Positions 4,443 to 49,314 of a DNA stretch of 64,000 nt are shown here, piece after piece. The translations under genes were made by a program, and so were the position numbers. Position 1 is the first letter of the stretch, and every line of letters begins with the position of its first letter. The notes under the pieces are model-generated. The model ran no database searches, had not been told where the DNA came from, and saw nothing but the letters and a program-made list of their open reading frames with translations. Source of the DNA: Paludibacteraceae bacterium (GTDB lineage: Bacteria; Bacteroidota; Bacteroidia; Bacteroidales; Paludibacteraceae); NCBI GenBank assembly GCA_017551025.1, contig JAFZNG010000007.1, positions 1 to 64,000 on the forward strand. The letters are read 5' to 3'.

Positions 4443-4450
4443 TAATTTTG
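4443..4450 (+). promoter_or_regulatory. -7 promoter box of the GH53-like gene
   Basis: TAATTTTG fits TAnnTTTG. It lies in the word AAAAAAGCAGTAATTTTGCA, which is repeated exactly before the gene at 21336. The -33 region is weak here. Confidence 0.6.
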
Positions 4451-4477
4451 CAGCGGATTAAAAAAATCTCTAATGTT

Positions 4478-6229
4478 ATGAGAAAAATTTGTACTATTTT
4501 GATCCTGTCGATGATGTGCCTGGGTGCGGTAGCGCAGAGCGGGTATTTTTTCGACATGGATGAGTTGGTAGCCAGCGAAGGCCTTTACCTGCCGCAGAAC
4601 AAGCCCAACCCGTTCAGCGGTTCCACCGACGTCTATCTGGCGGTCGTAGATGATGCGGAATTGAGCATCGTAGTTGCCGATGTGTTTGGAAGCATCGAGG
4701 CACAGTATACCGGTTGTCTGGAGCCTGGTATCCATCGTCTGAGTCTGACGCTGCGCACCAAGGGTACGCACGTGCTGGGCGTTCACCAGAATGACAAGAG
4801 TCGCTCCATAGTGCTGCTCTGTGAGCAAGGCGGCGCAACGAATTGTCTTGAGTACGCTGAGTTTGTCGAACCAATCGACCTCGAACTCTTCCAACAACTG
4901 CTCAACGAAGATAAAGAAGAAGACTTCGTGGCGTACGGAGCACTCCAATCACCAATTACCAATCACCAATCACCAATCCCAACCGACTTCCGCGTAGCCC
5001 TCTCGCTTAGTCCGTTTACGCTCAATCAGTTTGATCAGGGTTATACCTTCCGGATAGGCGATAAGACGGCTACTACGCCGGCACAGTTGCAGCAGATATA
5101 CAAAGACCTGGGATCTACAGAGATGTACGTGCGTTTAGCGACCAAGCGTCATAAGACCTATAATGCCGACGGCACGCTCGACAACACCACCGACGGCAAA
5201 GCGGATGAGAACGCCAACGTCCACACCTTCGATCAGGTGATGCAGACCTGCCGCATTGCTGCGAGCCTCAACATCCCCATCAATCCCGAAGTCATGTGCG
5301 CGTATATCTATATGGACATGGACGGCACGCAAGCGCCGCGATTCTATAAGGCGGATTATCCTGAACTGTATGCCTCCAACCCGACTTGGGCTTCTATCCT
5401 CAAGAACGGTGATGCCAAGTGGGAAGAACTCTCGCTCGAAGACATCTGTACCGTACTGGAGATATACGGTGAGTTCGTAGCAGACTCTATTCTTGCTACC
5501 GGCGCTACTGTCAACGACTGGAACCTCGGCAACGAGGCCAACTTCGGCTTTGCCGGCATCGGTATCGGTACGCCTAACTCCTTTGACCAGACGCTGGCCT
5601 CTGCCGGTCCGATGAAGCGCTATATGTCGTCGCTGTTCAGCCTCTATTGGCTCAAAAAACATGTATGGTGCTATAATGTGAAGCAGTACGCCGCTGTCAA
5701 GCGCGGTATCTTGAAGGCTTATGCCAAAGCCGGCAAGGATGCTTCGAACGTGCGCTTCTCTACGCATATCGCTACCGTTACCTCCACGCCGCGTGCCACA
5801 GCATCGTTCTTCCGGTATATGGCAGAAAACGGCTACGATATGGACGTTGCCGGTATCAGCTATTACCCTTCAGCTCCGGCGATGTCGTTCAATAAGAAGA
5901 AAATGCTCACCAAGACCGTCACGCGTATCAATAAGAAATGCGGTATTCCGGTCTTTATTGGCGAGTTCTCGTACCCGTCGCAAGACATGGTCGGACCGTT
6001 CGCCGGTTGGAACCAACAGCTAAGCAACTATGAGAAGAGCCAGCAAGGCCAAGCCGATATCTACCGCGATGTGATTACTTGGGGTAAGGACCACGGACTA
6101 ATCGGTATCCGTTACTGGGCACCCGACTACGAAGGCGAATGGTACCCGATGTCGATGTTCACCTTCGAGAACAAGGTCGGCACCGCCAAAACCATATTGT
6201 TGAACCATAAATCCATCGTACAGCAATGA
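4478..6229 (+). CDS. Secreted GH53-like glycoside hydrolase with N-terminal sorting-tail-like module
   Basis: A 583-residue secreted protein starting at the ATG at 4478 (signal peptide MRKICTILILSMMCLGAVAQ); the frame upstream is promoter. Residues about 35-120 contain NKPNPFSGSTDVYLAV, ELSIVVADVFGS and GIHRLSL..KGTHVLGV, the pattern of a T9SS type A sorting domain, here at the N-terminus instead of the C-terminus. The rest looks like a clan GH-A barrel. WNLGNE near residue 350 would hold the acid/base Glu, GISYYP follows, and FIGEFSYP near residue 494 would hold the nucleophile. This resembles GH53 endo-beta-1,4-galactanases; the substrate is inferred only. A linker at residues 157-168 is encoded by a 7-bp DNA repeat. 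The stop overlaps the next start (ATGA). Confidence 0.7.
   Translation: MRKICTILILSMMCLGAVAQSGYFFDMDELVASEGLYLPQNKPNPFSGSTDVYLAVVDDAELSIVVADVFGSIEAQYTGCLEPGIHRLSLTLRTKGTHVLGVHQNDKSRSIVLLCEQGGATNCLEYAEFVEPIDLELFQQLLNEDKEEDFVAYGALQSPITNHQSPIPTDFRVALSLSPFTLNQFDQGYTFRIGDKTATTPAQLQQIYKDLGSTEMYVRLATKRHKTYNADGTLDNTTDGKADENANVHTFDQVMQTCRIAASLNIPINPEVMCAYIYMDMDGTQAPRFYKADYPELYASNPTWASILKNGDAKWEELSLEDICTVLEIYGEFVADSILATGATVNDWNLGNEANFGFAGIGIGTPNSFDQTLASAGPMKRYMSSLFSLYWLKKHVWCYNVKQYAAVKRGILKAYAKAGKDASNVRFSTHIATVTSTPRATASFFRYMAENGYDMDVAGISYYPSAPAMSFNKKKMLTKTVTRINKKCGIPVFIGEFSYPSQDMVGPFAGWNQQLSNYEKSQQGQADIYRDVITWGKDHGLIGIRYWAPDYEGEWYPMSMFTFENKVGTAKTILLNHKSIVQQ
4946..4980 (+). repeat. Intragenic heptamer tract, 5 units
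   Basis: Five 7-bp units (CAATCAC, CAATTAC, CAATCAC, CAATCAC, CAATCCC) lie inside the GH53-like gene. The 35 bp encode a QSPITNHQSPIP linker between the N-terminal module and the catalytic domain. Confidence 0.9.
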
Positions 6230-8451: not shown

Positions 8452-8483
8452 TTTGCGTATGTCAAAAATTATTCGTACCTTTG
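8452..8483 (+). promoter_or_regulatory. -33/-7 promoter before the RhuM remnant
   Basis: TTTGCGTATGTC at 8452 and TACCTTTG at 8476-8483 are 24 bases apart. It is an intact full-consensus promoter in front of a broken gene. Confidence 0.75.
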
Positions 8484-8506
8484 CATGCGAAAAGATTATT
8501 GAAAAA

Positions 8507-8953
8507 ATGGATAACATAGAATTGACACACGACAATATTGTTCTTTACCGCTCGGAAGACGGTAAGGTAAACGTCGATGTAATCTTGACTGACGAGACTG
8601 TATGGGTAACACAGGATCAAATGACGTTGCTCTTTAGTCGTGATAAATCTACTATTTCGCGGCATATAAAGAACATTTTTGAGGATGGTGAACTGGACGA
8701 AAATTCAGTAGTTGCATTTTTTGCAACAACTGCCGCTGATGGTAAAACATATAATGTGGCATACTACAACCTCGATGTTATTATCTCTGTGGGTTATCGT
8801 GTTCATTCTGTGCAAGGTACGCGTTTCCGTGCGAAATGCGGGAGCTGGAATCAGACTACGACAAAGCGATTCGCCAATTATCACTATTTAGTCAAAATCA
8901 ATCCAGTTGTCCGCAAAAATCGGATAACTAAAGAAACGAAAGCTAACCAATAA
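8507..8953 (+). pseudogene. RhuM-family gene with internal deletion
   Basis: The first 105 codons encode the N-terminal part of a RhuM/virulence-type protein: DNIVLYRSEDGKVNVDVIL, VWVTQDQMTLLFSRDKSTIS, and YYNLDVIISVGYRVHSVQGT. The conserved sequence stops after GTRFRAK and the remaining 40 codons look like random frame. In the other frame from 8836 to 8931 there is a 31-codon stretch starting MRELESDYDKAIRQLSLFSQ, which looks like a genuine C-terminus. The central 150-200 codons of a normal gene are therefore missing, and both ends are joined out of frame. The intact family member is about 300-340 residues. The promoter is intact, so a truncated protein could still be made. Confidence 0.7.
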
Positions 8954-8979: not shown

Positions 8980-11241
8980 ATGGCTATACGGTTCCTGCTG
9001 ATCATCGGCGGGTTGCTCAGCGTGTGTCAAGGGGTAAGTGCGGCGGTGTATAACGGTAACTGCGGAGCAAACGGAAATAACCTCACATGGTCGCTCAATA
9101 CATCTACCGGTGTGCTAACCATCAGCGGTAGTGGAGATATGGAGCATTATACGTCTTCCCCTCAACCGTGGGCTTCCTACATTTCATATATCAATAGTGT
9201 CGTACTGCCGGAAGGCATCACTAGAATAGGAATACGTGCTTTTAAAAATCACACAGCGCTAAGTTCCATAAATCTCCCATCAACTCTAACAAATATCGGT
9301 CTAGAAGCTTTTCGTGCTACAGCTCTCACAAGTGTTGAGATTCCATCTGGCATGCAAGGGATAAATTATTGGACATTCAAAGATTGTGCAAGTCTAACTA
9401 CAGTTCGTTTGCCGGCAAGTATTACTTCATTGCCTACTCCGGGCGCATTTTGCGGATGTACTAGTCTCCAATATGTATATGTGTCATGGGAAACAGCAAG
9501 TCAGATTCCTACTTGCTCCAATACCTCAAATTTCTTCCATGACCTTACTACGAAACCTACACTCTACGTGCCTTGCGGTACAATTTCTTTGTATCAAAAC
9601 AAAGGCTGGAATAACAAATTCACAATAACTGATATTTTGGCAAGTGGCACTTGCGGCAGTAATCTAACATGGTCACTTAACACATGCGGCACACTAACCA
9701 TCAGCGGAACAGGAGCGATGAGTAATTATCCAGGAATGAATATGCCATGGAGATCGCGTAGAGCATCCATTACATCTGTTGTTATCTCCGATGGAGTCAC
9801 AAGTATCGGATATAATGCGTTCAATGGTTGCTCAAATCTAACATCCGTGACGATTCCTCCGTCCGTTACCTCTATTGAGCAAAATGCATTCTACGGCTGC
9901 TATGCGATGGAGTCGTTATATATTACCGATTTGGCAGCATGGTGTAATGTCGAGTTTGGCGTTTCAGTAGAAGCTACTCCATTTATGCGCAATAATTACA
10001 ATAGTGGTTCTACAGAATATTTAGGTGGAGGAAACCTATATCTGAATGGAACCCTTGTGACAACATTGACGATTCCTGACGGCATTACGGAAATCAAAAA
10101 TCTTACTTTTTTAGGATGTTCAAGTATCACTTCCATTGATTTCAATCAGGTGACCACTATTGGTAGTGCTTCTTTCAAAGGCTGCCATGGTTTGACTTCT
10201 GTCACGCTTCCGGAAGGAGTGACATCTCTCCAAAACGCATTTCCGTATTGTACCCAACTACAGTCGATATCTATACCGGCATCGCTCACTTCTTTGGCCA
10301 GACAAACGCTATATCATAGTGATGCACTAACGGATATTTACGTATATTGGACGGATAATATACCCGGTTGGAAGGAGTATTTCACCTCTAAATCGCCACA
10401 ATCAAGTATCACGCTCCATGTGCCGTGCGGAAAGACTGCAATCTACCAAGCTGCAAGCGGATGGAAGAACTATACGATTGTCGATGATGTGCCTAATATC
10501 AAGAGTGGCACGTACGGACCGGATAATATTGAGTGGTCGTTCGATTATTGCGACAGCACATTGAGTATCACCGGAAACGGTGAATTGCGCTGCGACAACA
10601 ATACCTGGGGTCCCAATGCCGGAGGTATTAATCCTGCTATAGTAAAAAGAGTATTTGTCGGTAAAGGCGTTACTTATCTGGGCATCTACACGCTTTCATA
10701 TATGTCGAATATAGAGTATATTGAGGTAGAAGCCGGCCATCCGACCCATCGAACGGGGTGCAACGCAATCATCCGCATCGGTACGGAGCAAGAAGGCGAC
10801 ACGCTCATATTCGGTTGTCCGCATACCGTCATTCCGACAACTTGTACAACCATTCGTGGCTACGCTTTCTGGGATGATCATCTCGTAACAGAGATGACTA
10901 TTCCTTCTTCTGTGAAGCAAATAGCCAATATGCAAGGCTCCTTATGGCAAGGTAATAACGGACAAGTGTTCTATACCAGCAATAATGCAGGAGAAGGATT
11001 GAAGGATCTGTATGTCGAATGGACTACCCTCGATGATATTCCGGTAGTTCCTAACAATCGGTTGGGCAGTATGACCAACGTCCGGCTCCATGTGCCCTGC
11101 GGTACAACCGCTTTGTACAAACAAGTTACCGGCTGGAAGAATTTTAAAGAATATATAGAAGAATCGACTTCCTTTACCGTTACTGTACAAACAGCAACGG
11201 GGGATACCTCGCAAGGAAGCGTCTCGATAATTGAAAACTGA
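8980..11241 (+). CDS. BspA-like leucine-rich-repeat surface protein ending inside an InlB B-repeat
   Basis: A 753-residue secreted protein. The ATG at 8980 gives a signal peptide ending in VSA; an in-frame TTG at 8959 is less likely. It has three sections, each opening with a NLTWSLNTSTGVLTISGSGDM-type strand pair and followed by LRR_5/TpLRR repeats such as GVTSIGYNAFNGCSNLTSVTIPPSVTSIEQNAFYGC (read in two halves). These are the BspA adhesin family repeats. The last residues, TVQTATGDTSQGSVSIIEN, are the first strand of an InlB-type B-repeat that stops abruptly. The stop codon belongs to a repetitive spacer (CTGAAAA type). There is no sorting tail, so secretion by T9SS would depend on its neighbours. 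Confidence 0.85.
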   Translation: MAIRFLLIIGGLLSVCQGVSAAVYNGNCGANGNNLTWSLNTSTGVLTISGSGDMEHYTSSPQPWASYISYINSVVLPEGITRIGIRAFKNHTALSSINLPSTLTNIGLEAFRATALTSVEIPSGMQGINYWTFKDCASLTTVRLPASITSLPTPGAFCGCTSLQYVYVSWETASQIPTCSNTSNFFHDLTTKPTLYVPCGTISLYQNKGWNNKFTITDILASGTCGSNLTWSLNTCGTLTISGTGAMSNYPGMNMPWRSRRASITSVVISDGVTSIGYNAFNGCSNLTSVTIPPSVTSIEQNAFYGCYAMESLYITDLAAWCNVEFGVSVEATPFMRNNYNSGSTEYLGGGNLYLNGTLVTTLTIPDGITEIKNLTFLGCSSITSIDFNQVTTIGSASFKGCHGLTSVTLPEGVTSLQNAFPYCTQLQSISIPASLTSLARQTLYHSDALTDIYVYWTDNIPGWKEYFTSKSPQSSITLHVPCGKTAIYQAASGWKNYTIVDDVPNIKSGTYGPDNIEWSFDYCDSTLSITGNGELRCDNNTWGPNAGGINPAIVKRVFVGKGVTYLGIYTLSYMSNIEYIEVEAGHPTHRTGCNAIIRIGTEQEGDTLIFGCPHTVIPTTCTTIRGYAFWDDHLVTEMTIPSSVKQIANMQGSLWQGNNGQVFYTSNNAGEGLKDLYVEWTTLDDIPVVPNNRLGSMTNVRLHVPCGTTALYKQVTGWKNFKEYIEESTSFTVTVQTATGDTSQGSVSIIEN

Positions 11242-11311
11242 CAACTGAAAATTCGCTCAGCGAATAATCGTTCGAGTGAAACGAGATAAGAATACTGAAA
11301 ACTGAAATATT
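11231..11311 (+). repeat. Repetitive spacer with CTGAAAA-type units and two small hairpins
   Basis: Units AAAACTG, ACAACTG and AAAATTC lie at the left end and TACTGAAAACTGAAAT at the right. Between them are short inverted repeats (ATTCGCTCAGCGAAT and CTCGTTTC-type GTTCGAGTGAAACGAG). The first unit supplies the stop codon of the LRR gene. Confidence 0.75.
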
Positions 11312-11334
11312 AACTAAATAACACACCAATCAAA

Positions 11335-11841
11335 ATGAAACGTTTAATGATTTTATGCGCAGCAGTGGCATTCGCTGCAAGCGCGATGGCTCAATCAGCA
11401 AATGACAATCAAACTGTAGATTGTAACGGTTCCGTTACTATCAAGGCCACACCGGTTTCTGGTTATCACTTCGTGAAATGGGTGGACGCTGCTTCAAACG
11501 AGTACACCGATGCTACGATGACCGTATCGAGTATCAAAGAAGCAAAGACCTTCACCGCTCACTTCGCTGCTAACCAAGCGATTGATCCGAGTATCAGCGA
11601 CCCGACAAACCCGAATCCGGGTCTTGGTGACGTACTGAGCCTTGTTCCGAAGACGGATGACGACTGTTTGGTATTTGACCACTGGAGTGATGGCAATACC
11701 GACAATCCGCGTAGCTTTACCTACGAAGGTGTAGCTCCAACCTTCACTGCTGTCTTCGTAACCAAGACATACAATGTCAATGTGACTACCGCTACGGGTG
11801 ACAACACGCAAGGTACTGTTGAGTTCGTAACTGTGCCCTAA
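11335..11841 (+). CDS. Secreted InlB B-repeat protein, middle part of a split protein
   Basis: A 168-residue protein with a clear signal peptide (MKRLMILCAAVAFAASAMAQ). The mature part starts in the middle of an InlB-type B-repeat: VTIKATPVSGYHFVKWVDAA, then TFTAHFA. It continues with a second, degenerate repeat (CLVFDHWSDGNTDNPRSF, TFTAVFV). It ends with VNVTTATGDNTQGTVEFVTVP, again only the first strand of a repeat. The missing first strand is the end of the upstream gene, and the missing last part opens the downstream gene. No sorting tail is present. It probably acts only with its neighbours at the cell surface. Confidence 0.75.
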   Translation: MKRLMILCAAVAFAASAMAQSANDNQTVDCNGSVTIKATPVSGYHFVKWVDAASNEYTDATMTVSSIKEAKTFTAHFAANQAIDPSISDPTNPNPGLGDVLSLVPKTDDDCLVFDHWSDGNTDNPRSFTYEGVAPTFTAVFVTKTYNVNVTTATGDNTQGTVEFVTVP

Positions 11842-11846
11842 TCGGT

Positions 11847-11886
11847 CGATATAACGAAATAACGATATAACGTTATAACGAAAAAA
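11847..11886 (+). repeat. Octamer tract, 5 units
   Basis: Units are CGATATAA, CGAAATAA, CGATATAA, CGTTATAA and CGAAAAAA, starting 5 bp after the stop codon and ending 10 bp before the next start. Confidence 0.92.
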
Positions 11887-11896
11887 ATAAAACACC

Positions 11897-12685
11897 TTGC
11901 AACGTAAGTTGCGTTACATATTAGTCTTTGCTCTTTGCTCCTTGTTCCTGACTCCGGGACGGGCAGATGAGGTGGCTTGCGGCACATGGCTGCAGTTACG
12001 CGCCGTGCCTGTGGAGGACTGGCATTTTGAGCGATGGTCGGATGGTAACACCGATTCGGTGCGACTGATTGAAATCACGTCGGACACCACCCTCTATGCC
12101 CATTTTGCGCCCAATTGTGGCGACTACGCCGCCTTGCCGGTAGTATCTCTCTACGACTGGCTGCTGATGCTCGACGTGAAGACCATCCAAGCGAAGGGGT
12201 ATTTCTTCGCCGAAGATAACGTCACGTGGTACCGCGTCCGAGGAGTACCCGACAAGATTGAAGAGGATGTCGGCAAGGATGATGAGCCGTTAACCACCGG
12301 TTATTACCTCACCATCGACCGGTCCTTCAAAGGCACAGGCGATTACTATGCCATCGTGGATGTGAGCGGTAGTCCGTCAGGACTGCTGTGCACGAGCCTT
12401 ATGCGTTCGGAATTAGTGCATTACACTTCTTCCGCTGCTCCTCCTGCGCCATTCCTCGAACCCACTATGGTACGACCGAACGAACAGCAACGACTCTTGC
12501 AACTCAACCCCGATTATCCGACAACCGTCACCATCTACGACATGTCCGGACATCGGCTGCAAACCCTTACTGCCGAAGGTGTCGAACGGCTATCTATCCA
12601 AGCCGCTCCGGTTGCCGGCTGCTACCAAGTCCTCGTCCAAAACGGCGAACAACGAACCGTATTACGATATATTGTAGTAAAATAG
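11897..12685 (+). CDS. Secreted protein with partial B-repeat and T9SS sorting domain
   Basis: A 262-residue protein with a TTG start; no ATG is available before the signal peptide (MQRKLRYILVFALCSLFLTPGRA). The mature part begins with the second half of a B-repeat (ACGTWLQLRAVPVEDWHFERWSDGNTDS, read in two parts), continuing the strand that ends the upstream gene. Residues about 75-180 are an unrecognised domain with KTIQAKGYFFAEDNVTWYRV. The last 75 residues are a type A sorting domain (TVTIYDMSGHRLQTL, GCYQVLVQNGEQRTVLRYIV). It supplies the only T9SS tail of the three-gene set. The h-region DNA is a 7-bp repeat. Confidence 0.75.
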   Translation: MQRKLRYILVFALCSLFLTPGRADEVACGTWLQLRAVPVEDWHFERWSDGNTDSVRLIEITSDTTLYAHFAPNCGDYAALPVVSLYDWLLMLDVKTIQAKGYFFAEDNVTWYRVRGVPDKIEEDVGKDDEPLTTGYYLTIDRSFKGTGDYYAIVDVSGSPSGLLCTSLMRSELVHYTSSAAPPAPFLEPTMVRPNEQQRLLQLNPDYPTTVTIYDMSGHRLQTLTAEGVERLSIQAAPVAGCYQVLVQNGEQRTVLRYIVVK

Positions 12686-12687
12686 GT

Positions 12688-12727
12688 CGATATAACGATA
12701 TAACGTCATAACGTTATAACGAAAAAA
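12688..12727 (+). repeat. Octamer tract, 5 units
   Basis: Units are CGATATAA, CGATATAA, CGTCATAA, CGTTATAA and CGAAAAAA. It begins 2 bp after one stop and ends 5 bp before the next ATG. It is nearly the same sequence as 11847-11886. Confidence 0.92.
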
Positions 12728-31551: not shown

Positions 31552-31583
31552 CGTTATGACGTTATAACGGTATATCGTTATTA
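31552..31583 (-). repeat. Octamer tract between transketolase and leuS
   Basis: In plus-strand notation the units are CGTTATGA, CGTTATAA, CGGTATAT and CGTTATTA. It starts at the transketolase stop codon itself. Confidence 0.88.
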
Positions 31584-33593
31584 CGAGAGGAGGGCTTTGA
31601 CCTGTTTGTATACGTTCTCTGCCGTGAAGCCGAGTTTCTCGTCGAGGACTTTGTACGGGGCAGAGAAGCCGAAGGAGTTAAGACCCCAGATGGCGCCATT
31701 CTCGCCTACGAGGCTCTCGAGCGTGCAGGGCAGACCGGCGGTCATACCGAAGCGCTTGATGCCACGCGGCAGCACTTCGTCCTGGTACTCCTTGGGTTGC
31801 TCGCGGAAGAGTCCTTCGCTCGGTACGCTGACGATCTGCAGACGGATACCTTCTGCACGAAGCAGTTCAGCACCGGCGAGCAGGGTCGATACCTCGCTGC
31901 CGGAAGCCAGCAGTACGACTTGCGGGTTCTCGTCTTTCGATACGATATAGGCACCGCGGCGGAAGCCCTCGAGGTTGACGTTAGGCACCGGAGCAATGTC
32001 CTGACGACTAAGGATGAGGGCCGTCGGGGTAGCGGTATTCTCGATAGCGGCACGCCAAGCGAGGGTGGTCTCTTCAGCGTCGGCAGGACGAAGTACGAGC
32101 ATCGACGGAGCACCGTGATGGTTGTGCAGTTTCTCCATGAGACGGATCTGTGCCTCTTGCTCTACGGGTTCGTGGGTAGGACCGTCTTCGCCTACACGGA
32201 AGGCGTCGTGCGACCAGATGAACTTAACAGGCAGTTCCATGAGGGCAGCCATACGTACAGCGGGTTTCATATAATCGCTGAATACGAAGAACGTGCCGCA
32301 AGCGGGGATAACACCGCCGTGGAGCGCCATACCAATCATGACGCATGCCATGGTGAGTTCGGACACACCGGCTTGGAGGAACTGGCCGGAGAAGTCGCCA
32401 CGCGTAAAGGCGTGGGTCTTCTTAAGGAAGCCGTCGGTCTTATCGGAGTTGCTGAGGTCAGCAGACGAAACAATCATGTTGCCTACGTTCTCGGCCAGGA
32501 AGGAGAGCACTACTCCGCTGGCGTTGCGGGTAGCGGCACCGGCTTTCTGCTCGATGAGCGACCAGTCGATGCACGGTGCTTCTCCGGACATGAAGGTCTC
32601 GTATTCCTTAGCTGCCTCAGGGTTGGCCTGTGCCCACTGGTGATAAGCAGCATAGCGCTCGTTGGCGATCTCGCGCAGCTCTACGGCACGGTCGTCGTAG
32701 AGTTTCTTTACCTCGGGGAAGATCTGGAACGGGTTCTGCGGGTCGCCGCCAAGATTCTCAATCGTGCGCTCGAACGATGCACCGGCTTTGCTGAGCGGAG
32801 CACCGTGGGTAGAGCACTTACCTTCCCAGTTAGCACCTTCGGCGGTCACGCAACCCTTACCCATCGTCGTGTTACCGATGATAAGAGACGGTTGACCTTG
32901 ATGGGCTTTGGCCTTGATAATTGCTTCGCGGATAGCATCGGGATCGTTGCCCGGGATAACCTGTACAAACCATCCCCAAGCTTTGTATTTAGCTTCTACG
33001 TCCTCGCTGGTCACCTCGCCGCACTCGGTGGAGAGCTGGATGGTATTGGAGTCGTAGAACATGATGAGGTTATCGAGTCCGAGGTGACCGGCCAGACGGC
33101 CTGCACCCTGTGAAATCTCTTCTTGTACGCCACCATCCGAGATGAAGGCATAGATGGTCGGGTTGTGGATCGCACCGAAGCGCTGGTTGAACCACTTAGC
33201 AGCGATGGCTGCACCTACGGCGAAGGTATGTCCTTGTCCGAGCGGACCGGAGGTGTTCTCGATCATTCGCTCGATCTCGCGCTCGGGGTGACCGGGTGTA
33301 ACCGAACCCCACTGACGCAGGTTCTGGAGGTCGGCGAGGGTGAACTTACCGGCGAGGCAGAGTTGGCCATAGAGCATCGGAGCCATATGTCCGGGGTCGA
33401 GGAAGAAGCGGTCGCGTGCTTCCCAACCGGGATTCTCGGGATCGTACTCGAGGAACTCAGAGAAGAGGACGTTGATGAAGTCTGCGCCACCCATCGCTCC
33501 ACCGGGGTGACCACTCTTAGCTTTCTCTACTGCTGCGGCAGCCAGGATACGGATGTTATCCGCTGCGCGATTCATAAGTTGTGTCTTGTTCAT
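31581..33593 (-). CDS. tkt: Transketolase
   Basis: A 670-residue thiamine-diphosphate enzyme of the pentose phosphate pathway that moves two-carbon units between sugar phosphates. The N-terminal domain shows KSGHPGGAMGGADF, GHMAPMLYG, GPLGQGHTFAVGAAIA and the TPP motif region FISDGGVQEEISQG. The middle domain has GVSELTMACVMIGMALHGGV, KFIWSHDAFRVGEDGPTHEP and the C-terminal part VVLLASGSEVST. The length is standard. It lies between an envelope gene and leuS in a probable five-gene minus-strand operon, with octamer tracts in both flanking spacers. Confidence 0.97.
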   Translation of the reverse strand: MNKTQLMNRAADNIRILAAAAVEKAKSGHPGGAMGGADFINVLFSEFLEYDPENPGWEARDRFFLDPGHMAPMLYGQLCLAGKFTLADLQNLRQWGSVTPGHPEREIERMIENTSGPLGQGHTFAVGAAIAAKWFNQRFGAIHNPTIYAFISDGGVQEEISQGAGRLAGHLGLDNLIMFYDSNTIQLSTECGEVTSEDVEAKYKAWGWFVQVIPGNDPDAIREAIIKAKAHQGQPSLIIGNTTMGKGCVTAEGANWEGKCSTHGAPLSKAGASFERTIENLGGDPQNPFQIFPEVKKLYDDRAVELREIANERYAAYHQWAQANPEAAKEYETFMSGEAPCIDWSLIEQKAGAATRNASGVVLSFLAENVGNMIVSSADLSNSDKTDGFLKKTHAFTRGDFSGQFLQAGVSELTMACVMIGMALHGGVIPACGTFFVFSDYMKPAVRMAALMELPVKFIWSHDAFRVGEDGPTHEPVEQEAQIRLMEKLHNHHGAPSMLVLRPADAEETTLAWRAAIENTATPTALILSRQDIAPVPNVNLEGFRRGAYIVSKDENPQVVLLASGSEVSTLLAGAELLRAEGIRLQIVSVPSEGLFREQPKEYQDEVLPRGIKRFGMTAGLPCTLESLVGENGAIWGLNSFGFSAPYKVLDEKLGFTAENVYKQVKALLS

Positions 33594-49274: not shown

Positions 49275-49314
49275 CGTTATGACGTTATAACGTTATGACG
49301 TCATGACGACAAGA
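49275..49314 (+). repeat. Octamer tract after fusA
   Basis: Units are CGTTATGA, CGTTATAA, CGTTATGA, CGTCATGA and CGACAAGA. It belongs to the same family as those at 11847, 12688, 31552 and 33622. Confidence 0.92.

What the first reader, a model, noticed from the sequence alone, without database searches (positions are those of the whole stretch)
8980..12685. One LRR/InlB-repeat/T9SS protein split into three secreted proteins, twice at the same point of a repeat
The LRR gene ends with TATGDTSQGSV.. and the next gene ends with TATGDNTQGTV.., each only the first strand of an InlB B-repeat. The following gene each time starts, right after a new signal peptide, with the remaining part (..ATPVSGYHFVKW, ..RAVPVEDWHFERW). 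Two independent breaks at the same turn, each with stop, spacer, start and signal peptide, argue against simple decay. The pieces could reassemble by strand complementation, with only the third carrying the sorting tail.
Basis: partly seen in the sequence, partly recalled or inferred. Interest (0 to 1): 0.78.

Follow-up and report, generated by a model that had tools for sequence, protein, structure and literature searches.

The report
Surface proteins sharing parts of domains
Neighbouring genes in a group of gut bacteria each encode part of a shared protein domain, so their separately exported products probably snap together, perhaps locked by a sulphur bridge, to build one surface structure; this follows from sequence comparison and has not been tested in the laboratory.

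Summary
Confirmed and enlarged. Both breaks at 8980-12685 are real and not a local accident. In at least 60 of 178 genus genomes (hand count of a cut list) genes open with a signal peptide followed by the last two thirds of a B-repeat. Of 124 such genes with an upstream ORF in range, 119 follow a gene ending in the missing first third (112 by a held-out profile, 7 by eye). In 118 scored junctions the cut falls at the same loop. In intact repeats the two parts co-vary as one fold. All 55 linker subunits carry one cysteine at the acceptor start and one in the last whole repeat; 48 have no other. One-chain relatives keep matching cysteine pairs inside one polypeptide. T9SS models hit 33 of 63 anchors and 0 of 54 linkers. 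Best reading: head, linker and anchor join by sharing a B-repeat, probably disulfide-locked, and are exported on the anchor's single T9SS tail. Sharing is well supported; disulfide and export route are inferred.

The parts
8980..11241 (+). gene 1, head: BspA-type LRR protein ending in a donor end
   Evidence: (PF13306)
11098..11100 (+). Cys707 in the LRR cap (LHVPCG), proposed partner of gene 2 Cys30
11173..11238 (+). donor end 1: FTVTVQTATGDTSQGSVSIIEN, first third of a B-repeat
   Evidence: model positions 16-34 of 89
11242..11334 (+). 93-bp spacer with AACTGAA-type repeats
11335..11841 (+). gene 2, linker: signal peptide, acceptor, second repeat, donor end
11335..11391 (+). signal peptide of gene 2 (by eye)
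11407..11577 (+). acceptor 1: remaining two thirds of the repeat
11422..11424 (+). Cys30, acceptor cysteine
11665..11667 (+). Cys111 in the last repeat before donor end 2, proposed partner of gene 3 Cys28
11764..11838 (+). donor end 2: TYNVNVTTATGDNTQGTVEFVTVP with one residue before it
   Evidence: model positions 11-33
11842..11896 (+). 55-bp spacer with ATAACGNT octamers
11897..12685 (+). gene 3, anchor: signal peptide, acceptor, middle domain, T9SS tail
11966..12112 (+). acceptor 2
11978..11980 (+). Cys28, acceptor cysteine
12476..12676 (+). T9SS type A sorting domain, residues 194-260
   Evidence: TIGR04183
12733..13686 (+). gene 4, barrel-like outer membrane protein found behind many anchors

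Best explanation
Genes 1 to 3 encode three exported chains of one surface assembly. Each upstream chain ends in the first third of a B-repeat (donor end); the next chain starts, behind its signal peptide, with the remaining two thirds (acceptor). In the periplasm the donor completes the acceptor's fold and so joins head (LRR) to linker to anchor; a cysteine of the donor chain, in its last repeat, beside its hairpin or in its LRR cap, then bonds the acceptor cysteine. The anchor's T9SS tail carries the assembly through the outer membrane, perhaps held by the gene-4 barrel. Shown by sequence: adjacency, common cut, co-variation of both parts in one-chain repeats, cysteine placement, tail distribution, purifying selection. 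Inferred: physical complementation (about 0.8), disulfide (about 0.65), joint secretion (about 0.6), role of the barrel.
For: Restarts follow donor ends in 119 of 124 (112 by a profile trained on the other half of the loci, 7 by eye). Composite: 118 of 118 junctions align as one repeat when joined, 117 beat the start alone by 3 bits, 114 beat the best of five shuffled tails by 3 bits. In 341 cysteine-free one-chain repeats 17 of the top 36 couplings cross the cut, the share expected if both sides are one domain, against 0 or 1 in ten re-pairings. Cysteines: 55 of 55 linkers have both, 48 no other; 67 of 68 heads have one in a defined place against 437 of 1220 control windows of the same heads. 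One-chain chains: an LRR-cap cysteine goes with an acceptor-slot cysteine in 39 of 46, without the cap 12 of 294. T9SS models: 33 of 63 anchors, 0 of 54 linkers. dN well below dS. The anchor fused to B-repeats in L134 lacks both cysteines.
Against: No structure. No VKOR over cut-off in 178 genus genomes, no DsbB or Thioredoxin_4 in the own genome. Across the split joints, contact positions showed no co-variation beyond what shared ancestry gives to other positions. Five restarts lack an upstream donor (L133 twice, L174, L198, L226), and 16 of 133 donor ends have no detected restart next. The acceptor-cysteine count is partly selected, since the search profile contains it. Within linkers the two cysteines could bond each other: that pairing is also frequent in adjacent repeats of one chain (12 of 20 against 22 of 185). 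Small gain in the Pfam test. TIGR04183 misses 30 of 63 anchors. The held-out halves share related operons.
Confidence: 0.75

Rival explanations
1. Decay: one long surface protein broken by insertions of short repeats, the restarts being chance reading frames.
For: Spacers in the window hold tandem repeats; in G009 the anchor is truncated beside such repeats.
Against: The same breaks recur in many species, often with spacers of a few bases or overlapping genes, each with signal peptide and cysteine; dN is well below dS, mostly in the tail too.
Confidence: 0.04
2. Each chain folds alone: the donor end is a harmless leftover or a separate sorting tag, and the acceptor part is a complete domain by itself. 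Adjacency reflects duplication of one gene.
For: No structure available; PF18998 alone scores the acceptor well; no pair-specific co-variation at the split joints.
Against: In intact repeats both parts co-vary as one domain; the acceptor begins at the cut in every scored junction; the donor end is nearly always in front of a restart.
Confidence: 0.13
3. Complementation happens, but the cysteines do not bond between chains: they stay reduced, bind metal or bond inside one chain.
For: No VKOR, DsbB or Thioredoxin_4 found; linkers have exactly two cysteines, which could pair internally.
Against: Long linkers keep the two at opposite ends; small anchors have a single mature cysteine in 6 of 7 cases; heads add one near the joint.
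Confidence: 0.3
4. The linker polymerises: its donor end fits its own acceptor, giving a fibre with the head at the tip and the anchor at the base.
For: Head and linker donor ends of one operon resemble each other more than those of other operons (0.35 against 0.27 identity, 47 operons).
Against: Shared ancestry gives the same; linker and anchor acceptors differ; no stoichiometry data.
Confidence: 0.25

Closest known systems
Donor-strand complementation in pili, including type V (Mfa/FimA) pili of Bacteroidales
   Same: Separately exported subunits joined head to tail because one completes the fold of the next.
   Different: Here the shared fold is a B-repeat, a hairpin is donated, a matched cysteine pair accompanies the joint and the last subunit has a T9SS tail. 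PMC4789730 and PMC5954841 seen as listings only; the rest is recalled.
SprB adhesin and SprF barrel of Flavobacterium johnsoniae
   Same: T9SS-exported adhesin with a barrel partner; many gene-4 homologs end in Cys-X-Cys like the SprF tail (PMC12635249 section 6 read).
   Different: SprB is a type B cargo (abstract of PMC9143113); here the anchor has a type A tail and the adhesin is three chains. The window's gene 4 lacks Cys-X-Cys and no PorP/SprF model matched.
InlB B-repeat (PF18998, PF09479)
   Same: The shared domain belongs to this family; the solved repeat resembles a beta-grasp fold in which a long loop links beta2 and beta3 (PMC8900821 passages).
   Different: In InlB the repeat lies in one chain; here it is spread over two.
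Cohesin-dockerin modules (recalled)
   Same: A common plug joins different heads to a shared partner.
   Different: There two complete domains bind; here two parts of one domain do.

Membership tests
InlB-type B-repeat (PF18998) | Profile match over the curated cut-off (23.6 bits) | tested here: met
   Acceptors of genes 2 and 3: 39.6 and 23.8 bits; joined with the donor ends 41.5 and 27.4. Gene 3 as a whole protein scores 20.6, below cut-off.
T9SS type A cargo | C-terminal sorting domain | tested here: met
   Gene 3: TIGR04183 26.6 bits, cut-off 23; genes 1 and 2: none.
T9SS type A cargo | T9SS translocon in the genome | tested here: met
   SprA model TIGR04189, 2697.9 bits, G000:C33.
Donor-strand pili (chaperone-usher or type V) | Pilin-family domain in the subunits | tested here: not met
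   None among Pfam and NCBIfam matches of genes 1-3.
Donor-strand pili (chaperone-usher or type V) | Usher or pilus assembly genes in the neighbourhood | not tested
   No search made.
Donor-strand pili (chaperone-usher or type V) | A strand of one subunit completes the fold of the next | tested here: inconclusive
   Sequence agrees; no structure.
SprB/SprF system | Barrel of the PorP/SprF family | tested here: not met
   No such model among matches of gene 4 and nine homologs at E up to 1.
SprB/SprF system | Cys-X-Cys in the barrel's C-tail | tested here: not met
   Absent in the window's gene 4; present in 11 listed homologs.
SprB/SprF system | Attachment to the moving track | not testable with these tools
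   Needs experiment.
Cohesin-dockerin | Dockerin in the partner | tested here: not met
   No dockerin among matches of genes 1-4 or ten heads; one head, L188, matches Cohesin (27.1 bits, cut-off 24.1).

The most novel reading that the evidence does not exclude
A general coupling system for surface assemblies in this genus: interchangeable heads (LRR, endonuclease I, others) plug by a donated B-repeat hairpin into a linker that can polymerise, each joint is sealed by an inter-chain disulfide, and the finished fibre is exported through T9SS on the one tail of its anchor and, in part of the operons, held by a barrel tied to the moving periplasmic track.
Probability: 0.25. Interest if true: 0.95.

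Novelty: categorically new. Interest (0 to 1): 0.85.

Why it matters
If true, this is a way to build multi-chain surface structures in Gram-negative bacteria without any pilus-type subunit: one domain is divided between two genes, and the cut itself is the joint. It would make directly testable whether T9SS can export a pre-assembled complex on a single tail. It would add a large set of inter-chain disulfides to a compartment where the authors of PMC12635249 call permanent ones almost unknown (passages). It also warns that many short B-repeat genes in gut Bacteroidales are subunits and not fragments, and it offers a modular plug for joining proteins.

Tried and rejected
A test for pair-specific co-variation across the split joints was negative: contact pairs rose above re-paired controls (0.039 against 0.029), but other pairs rose more clearly (0.075 against 0.057), as shared ancestry would give. 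PDB by sequence gave no real relative. That the spacer repeats cause the breaks was dropped, because breaks recur with unrelated and often very short spacers. A first donor-end expression was too loose (127 of 961 other ORFs, some of them real donors) and was replaced by a held-out profile. The order survey (393 genomes; list cut) showed matches starting at model position 1 or 2 only in G000 and G063, both of the genus; the next best, G218 of another genus (position 6), is part of a multi-repeat protein with no restart seen. My first look at the own genome read one strand only, so for matches on the other strand it says nothing. Papers were searched; no listing described this arrangement.
Full report
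Observation. Genes 1, 2 and 3 lie at 8980-11241, 11335-11841 and 11897-12685. Genes 1 and 2 end with TVTVQTATGDTSQGSVSIIEN and NVNVTTATGDNTQGTVEFVTVP. Genes 2 and 3 restart with a signal peptide (by eye) and then VDCNGSVTIKATPVSGYHFVKW and VACGTWLQLRAVPVEDWHFERW. Given separately, the restarts match PF18998 from model position 18 on and the tails give no hit. Of genes 1-4 only gene 3 has a T9SS tail. The genome has the T9SS translocon protein SprA.

The arrangement is conserved. Searching relatives with genes 2 and 3 gave separate ORFs of similar length in several species, at 41-69% identity for the best gene-2 matches. A profile of 21 restarts (signal peptide plus acceptor), run over 178 genomes of the genus, gave matches starting at model position 1 to 6 in 60 of them. 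This is a hand count of a list that was cut, so a lower bound for the list; such a start was not checked by eye in each. I fetched 60 further regions besides those.

Adjacency. In these regions 126 distinct restarts were found, 124 with an upstream ORF in range and 2 at contig ends. Upstream genes score as donor ends in 112 of 124 with a profile trained on the other half of the loci; related operons occur in both halves. Seven more are donor ends by eye (L130, L182, L207, L215, L217, L224, L225). Five are not: L133 twice, L174, L198, L226. L226 also lacks the acceptor cysteine. In the converse direction 117 of 133 distinct donor ends are followed by a detected restart; this is biased, because most regions were chosen for restarts. 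Of the other 16, four have a restart that missed a threshold of score or distance (L080, L139, L190, L211), ten are followed by another donor-end gene (two heads in a row in L128, L130, L135, L176, L178, L181, L202, and three in the L197 series), one has a truncated anchor (L019, same locus as L121) and one (L215) has nothing found in range.

One domain, one cut. A profile was built from 264 one-chain repeats in loci without split genes (built, used). In 118 junctions (of 123; those with donor score 10 or more) the donor end covers positions 10-34 and the restart 37-86 (medians). The donor stops at 33-35 in 98 of 118. Joined, the median score is 72.6 bits against 57.3 for the restart alone; 117 of 118 gain more than 3 bits, 114 beat the best of five shuffled tails by 3 bits. 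Coupling analysis of one-chain repeats (513; 341 without any cysteine) finds many couplings across the cut: 17 of the top 36 in the cysteine-free set, which is the share that all pairs across the cut make up, against 0 or 1 in ten re-paired controls. So in intact repeats the two parts form one fold. The solved InlB repeat is beta-grasp-like, with a long loop between beta2 and beta3 (PMC8900821, passages). A restart without its hairpin should be unable to finish its fold; that is inference.

Cysteines. Of 55 linkers, 55 carry the acceptor cysteine and 55 a cysteine just before the aromatic-x-F-x-x-W motif of the last whole repeat; 48 carry no other mature cysteine. In an alignment of 54 linkers both are invariant. 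The second lies outside the search profile and is no effect of selection; the first partly is. Over all repeats the acceptor-slot cysteine stands in 128 of 129 restarts and 41 of 328 repeats classed internal (at least 5 of these 41 are restarts that the class rule missed: L080, L139, L190, L211, L223); the other slot in 50 of 70 repeats before a donor end, 17 of 328 internal ones and 0 of 129 restarts. Of 68 heads, 67 have a cysteine in one of four placements: 28 in the last repeat, 21 near the start of the hairpin, 13 in the LRR cap, 5 as a twin motif; the same rule is met by 437 of 1220 random windows of the same heads, which are rich in cysteine. Of 63 anchors 62 have the acceptor cysteine (61 by script, L178 by eye); of the 7 smallest, 6 have no other mature one.

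The same pairs inside one chain. In internal repeats, an LRR-cap cysteine upstream goes with an acceptor-slot cysteine in 39 of 46; without the cap it is 12 of 294 (by simple pattern, related proteins not removed). Six of the seven exceptions have a cysteine just before the hairpin instead. In adjacent repeats of one chain, the last-repeat-type cysteine is followed by the acceptor-type one in 3 of 3, against 2 of 202 without it; two of the three are related proteins. The reverse order (acceptor slot, then the other slot in the next repeat) is also frequent, 12 of 20 against 22 of 185, as expected from two-repeat linkers; so a bond inside the linker is not excluded. In L134, where the anchor domain is fused to B-repeats, neither cysteine is present. 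In cysteine-free repeats position 40 (acceptor slot) couples with 13 (z 3.6) and 16 (z 2.9), and 39 with 17 (z 4.2), near the entry of the repeat; the largest value across the cut in the controls was 2.0 to 3.2. A disulfide between chains would explain these patterns; none was observed.

Against the disulfide. No VKOR above cut-off in 178 genomes, no DsbB or Thioredoxin_4 in the own genome; other oxidant families were not searched. A precedent exists: SprF and PorG form inter-chain disulfides with GldK through Cys-X-Cys motifs, and the authors call such bonds almost unknown between periplasmic proteins (PMC12635249, passages and section 6).

Selection and sorting. In the 30 linker pairs shown (76-96% identity) dN is 0.02-0.18 and dS 0.28 or more; in the last 22 codons dN is 0-0.33, mostly below dS, on few sites. 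TIGR04183 matches 33 of 63 anchors; no T9SS model matches any of 54 linkers. Several other anchors end in a short motif like that of other large secreted proteins of this genome; calling it a sorting tail is recalled, not tested. Behind many anchors a barrel-like protein is encoded, often abutting or overlapping. Gene 4 and nine homologs match no PorP/SprF model, but 11 homologs listed end in Cys-X-Cys, and L122 and L196.

Heads. Ten head genes were scanned (of 67 listed): endonuclease I, ASH and cohesin-like, a weak LRR match, B-repeats, and four without any match. The plug is not tied to one function.

Verdict. That parts of the repeat are shared between chains rests on adjacency, one cut, co-variation in intact repeats and cysteine placement. 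What is missing is structure and biochemistry. No specific pairing signal was found at the split joints. Outside the genus the rows listed showed no split form. I rate it as a new kind of assembly that works like donor-strand complementation but fails the membership test of those pili; the paper searches named above listed no description of it, and that library lacks most subscription journals.

Noticed in passing
window 11226-11307, 11847-11880, 12688-12721, 31552-31585, 49275-49300: Spacers carry 7- and 8-bp tandem repeats; an octamer pattern gives 17 matches (overlapping, both strands, up to 3 mismatches) against 0.07 expected.
   Followed up: partly
window 4448-6229: A GH53-type gene contains SPITNHQSPIP, which looks like a heptamer repeat inserted in frame.
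   Followed up: no
window 8453-8953: RhuM-family gene cut short: 166 aa, matching positions 1-56 of 252 of PF13310.
   Followed up: no
L123, L185, L186, L187, L189, L194, L199, L201, L210, L215, L217 (gene behind the anchor): Barrel-like proteins ending in a Cys-X-Cys tail as in SprF; absent from the window's gene 4.
   Followed up: partly
L121 6441-8349: In G009 the anchor gene is truncated next to a short tandem repeat and the barrel gene is short.
   Followed up: partly
L128, L130, L135, L176, L178, L181, L202: Two donor-end head genes in a row in front of one acceptor, as if alternative heads shared a linker.
   Followed up: partly
L083, L101, L110, L171, L179 (one-chain LRR proteins): Where the acceptor-slot cysteine is missing after an LRR cap, a cysteine just before the hairpin takes its place in 6 of 7 repeats.
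   Followed up: partly
178 genus genomes: No VKOR over the cut-off although many secreted proteins carry placed cysteines.
   Followed up: partly
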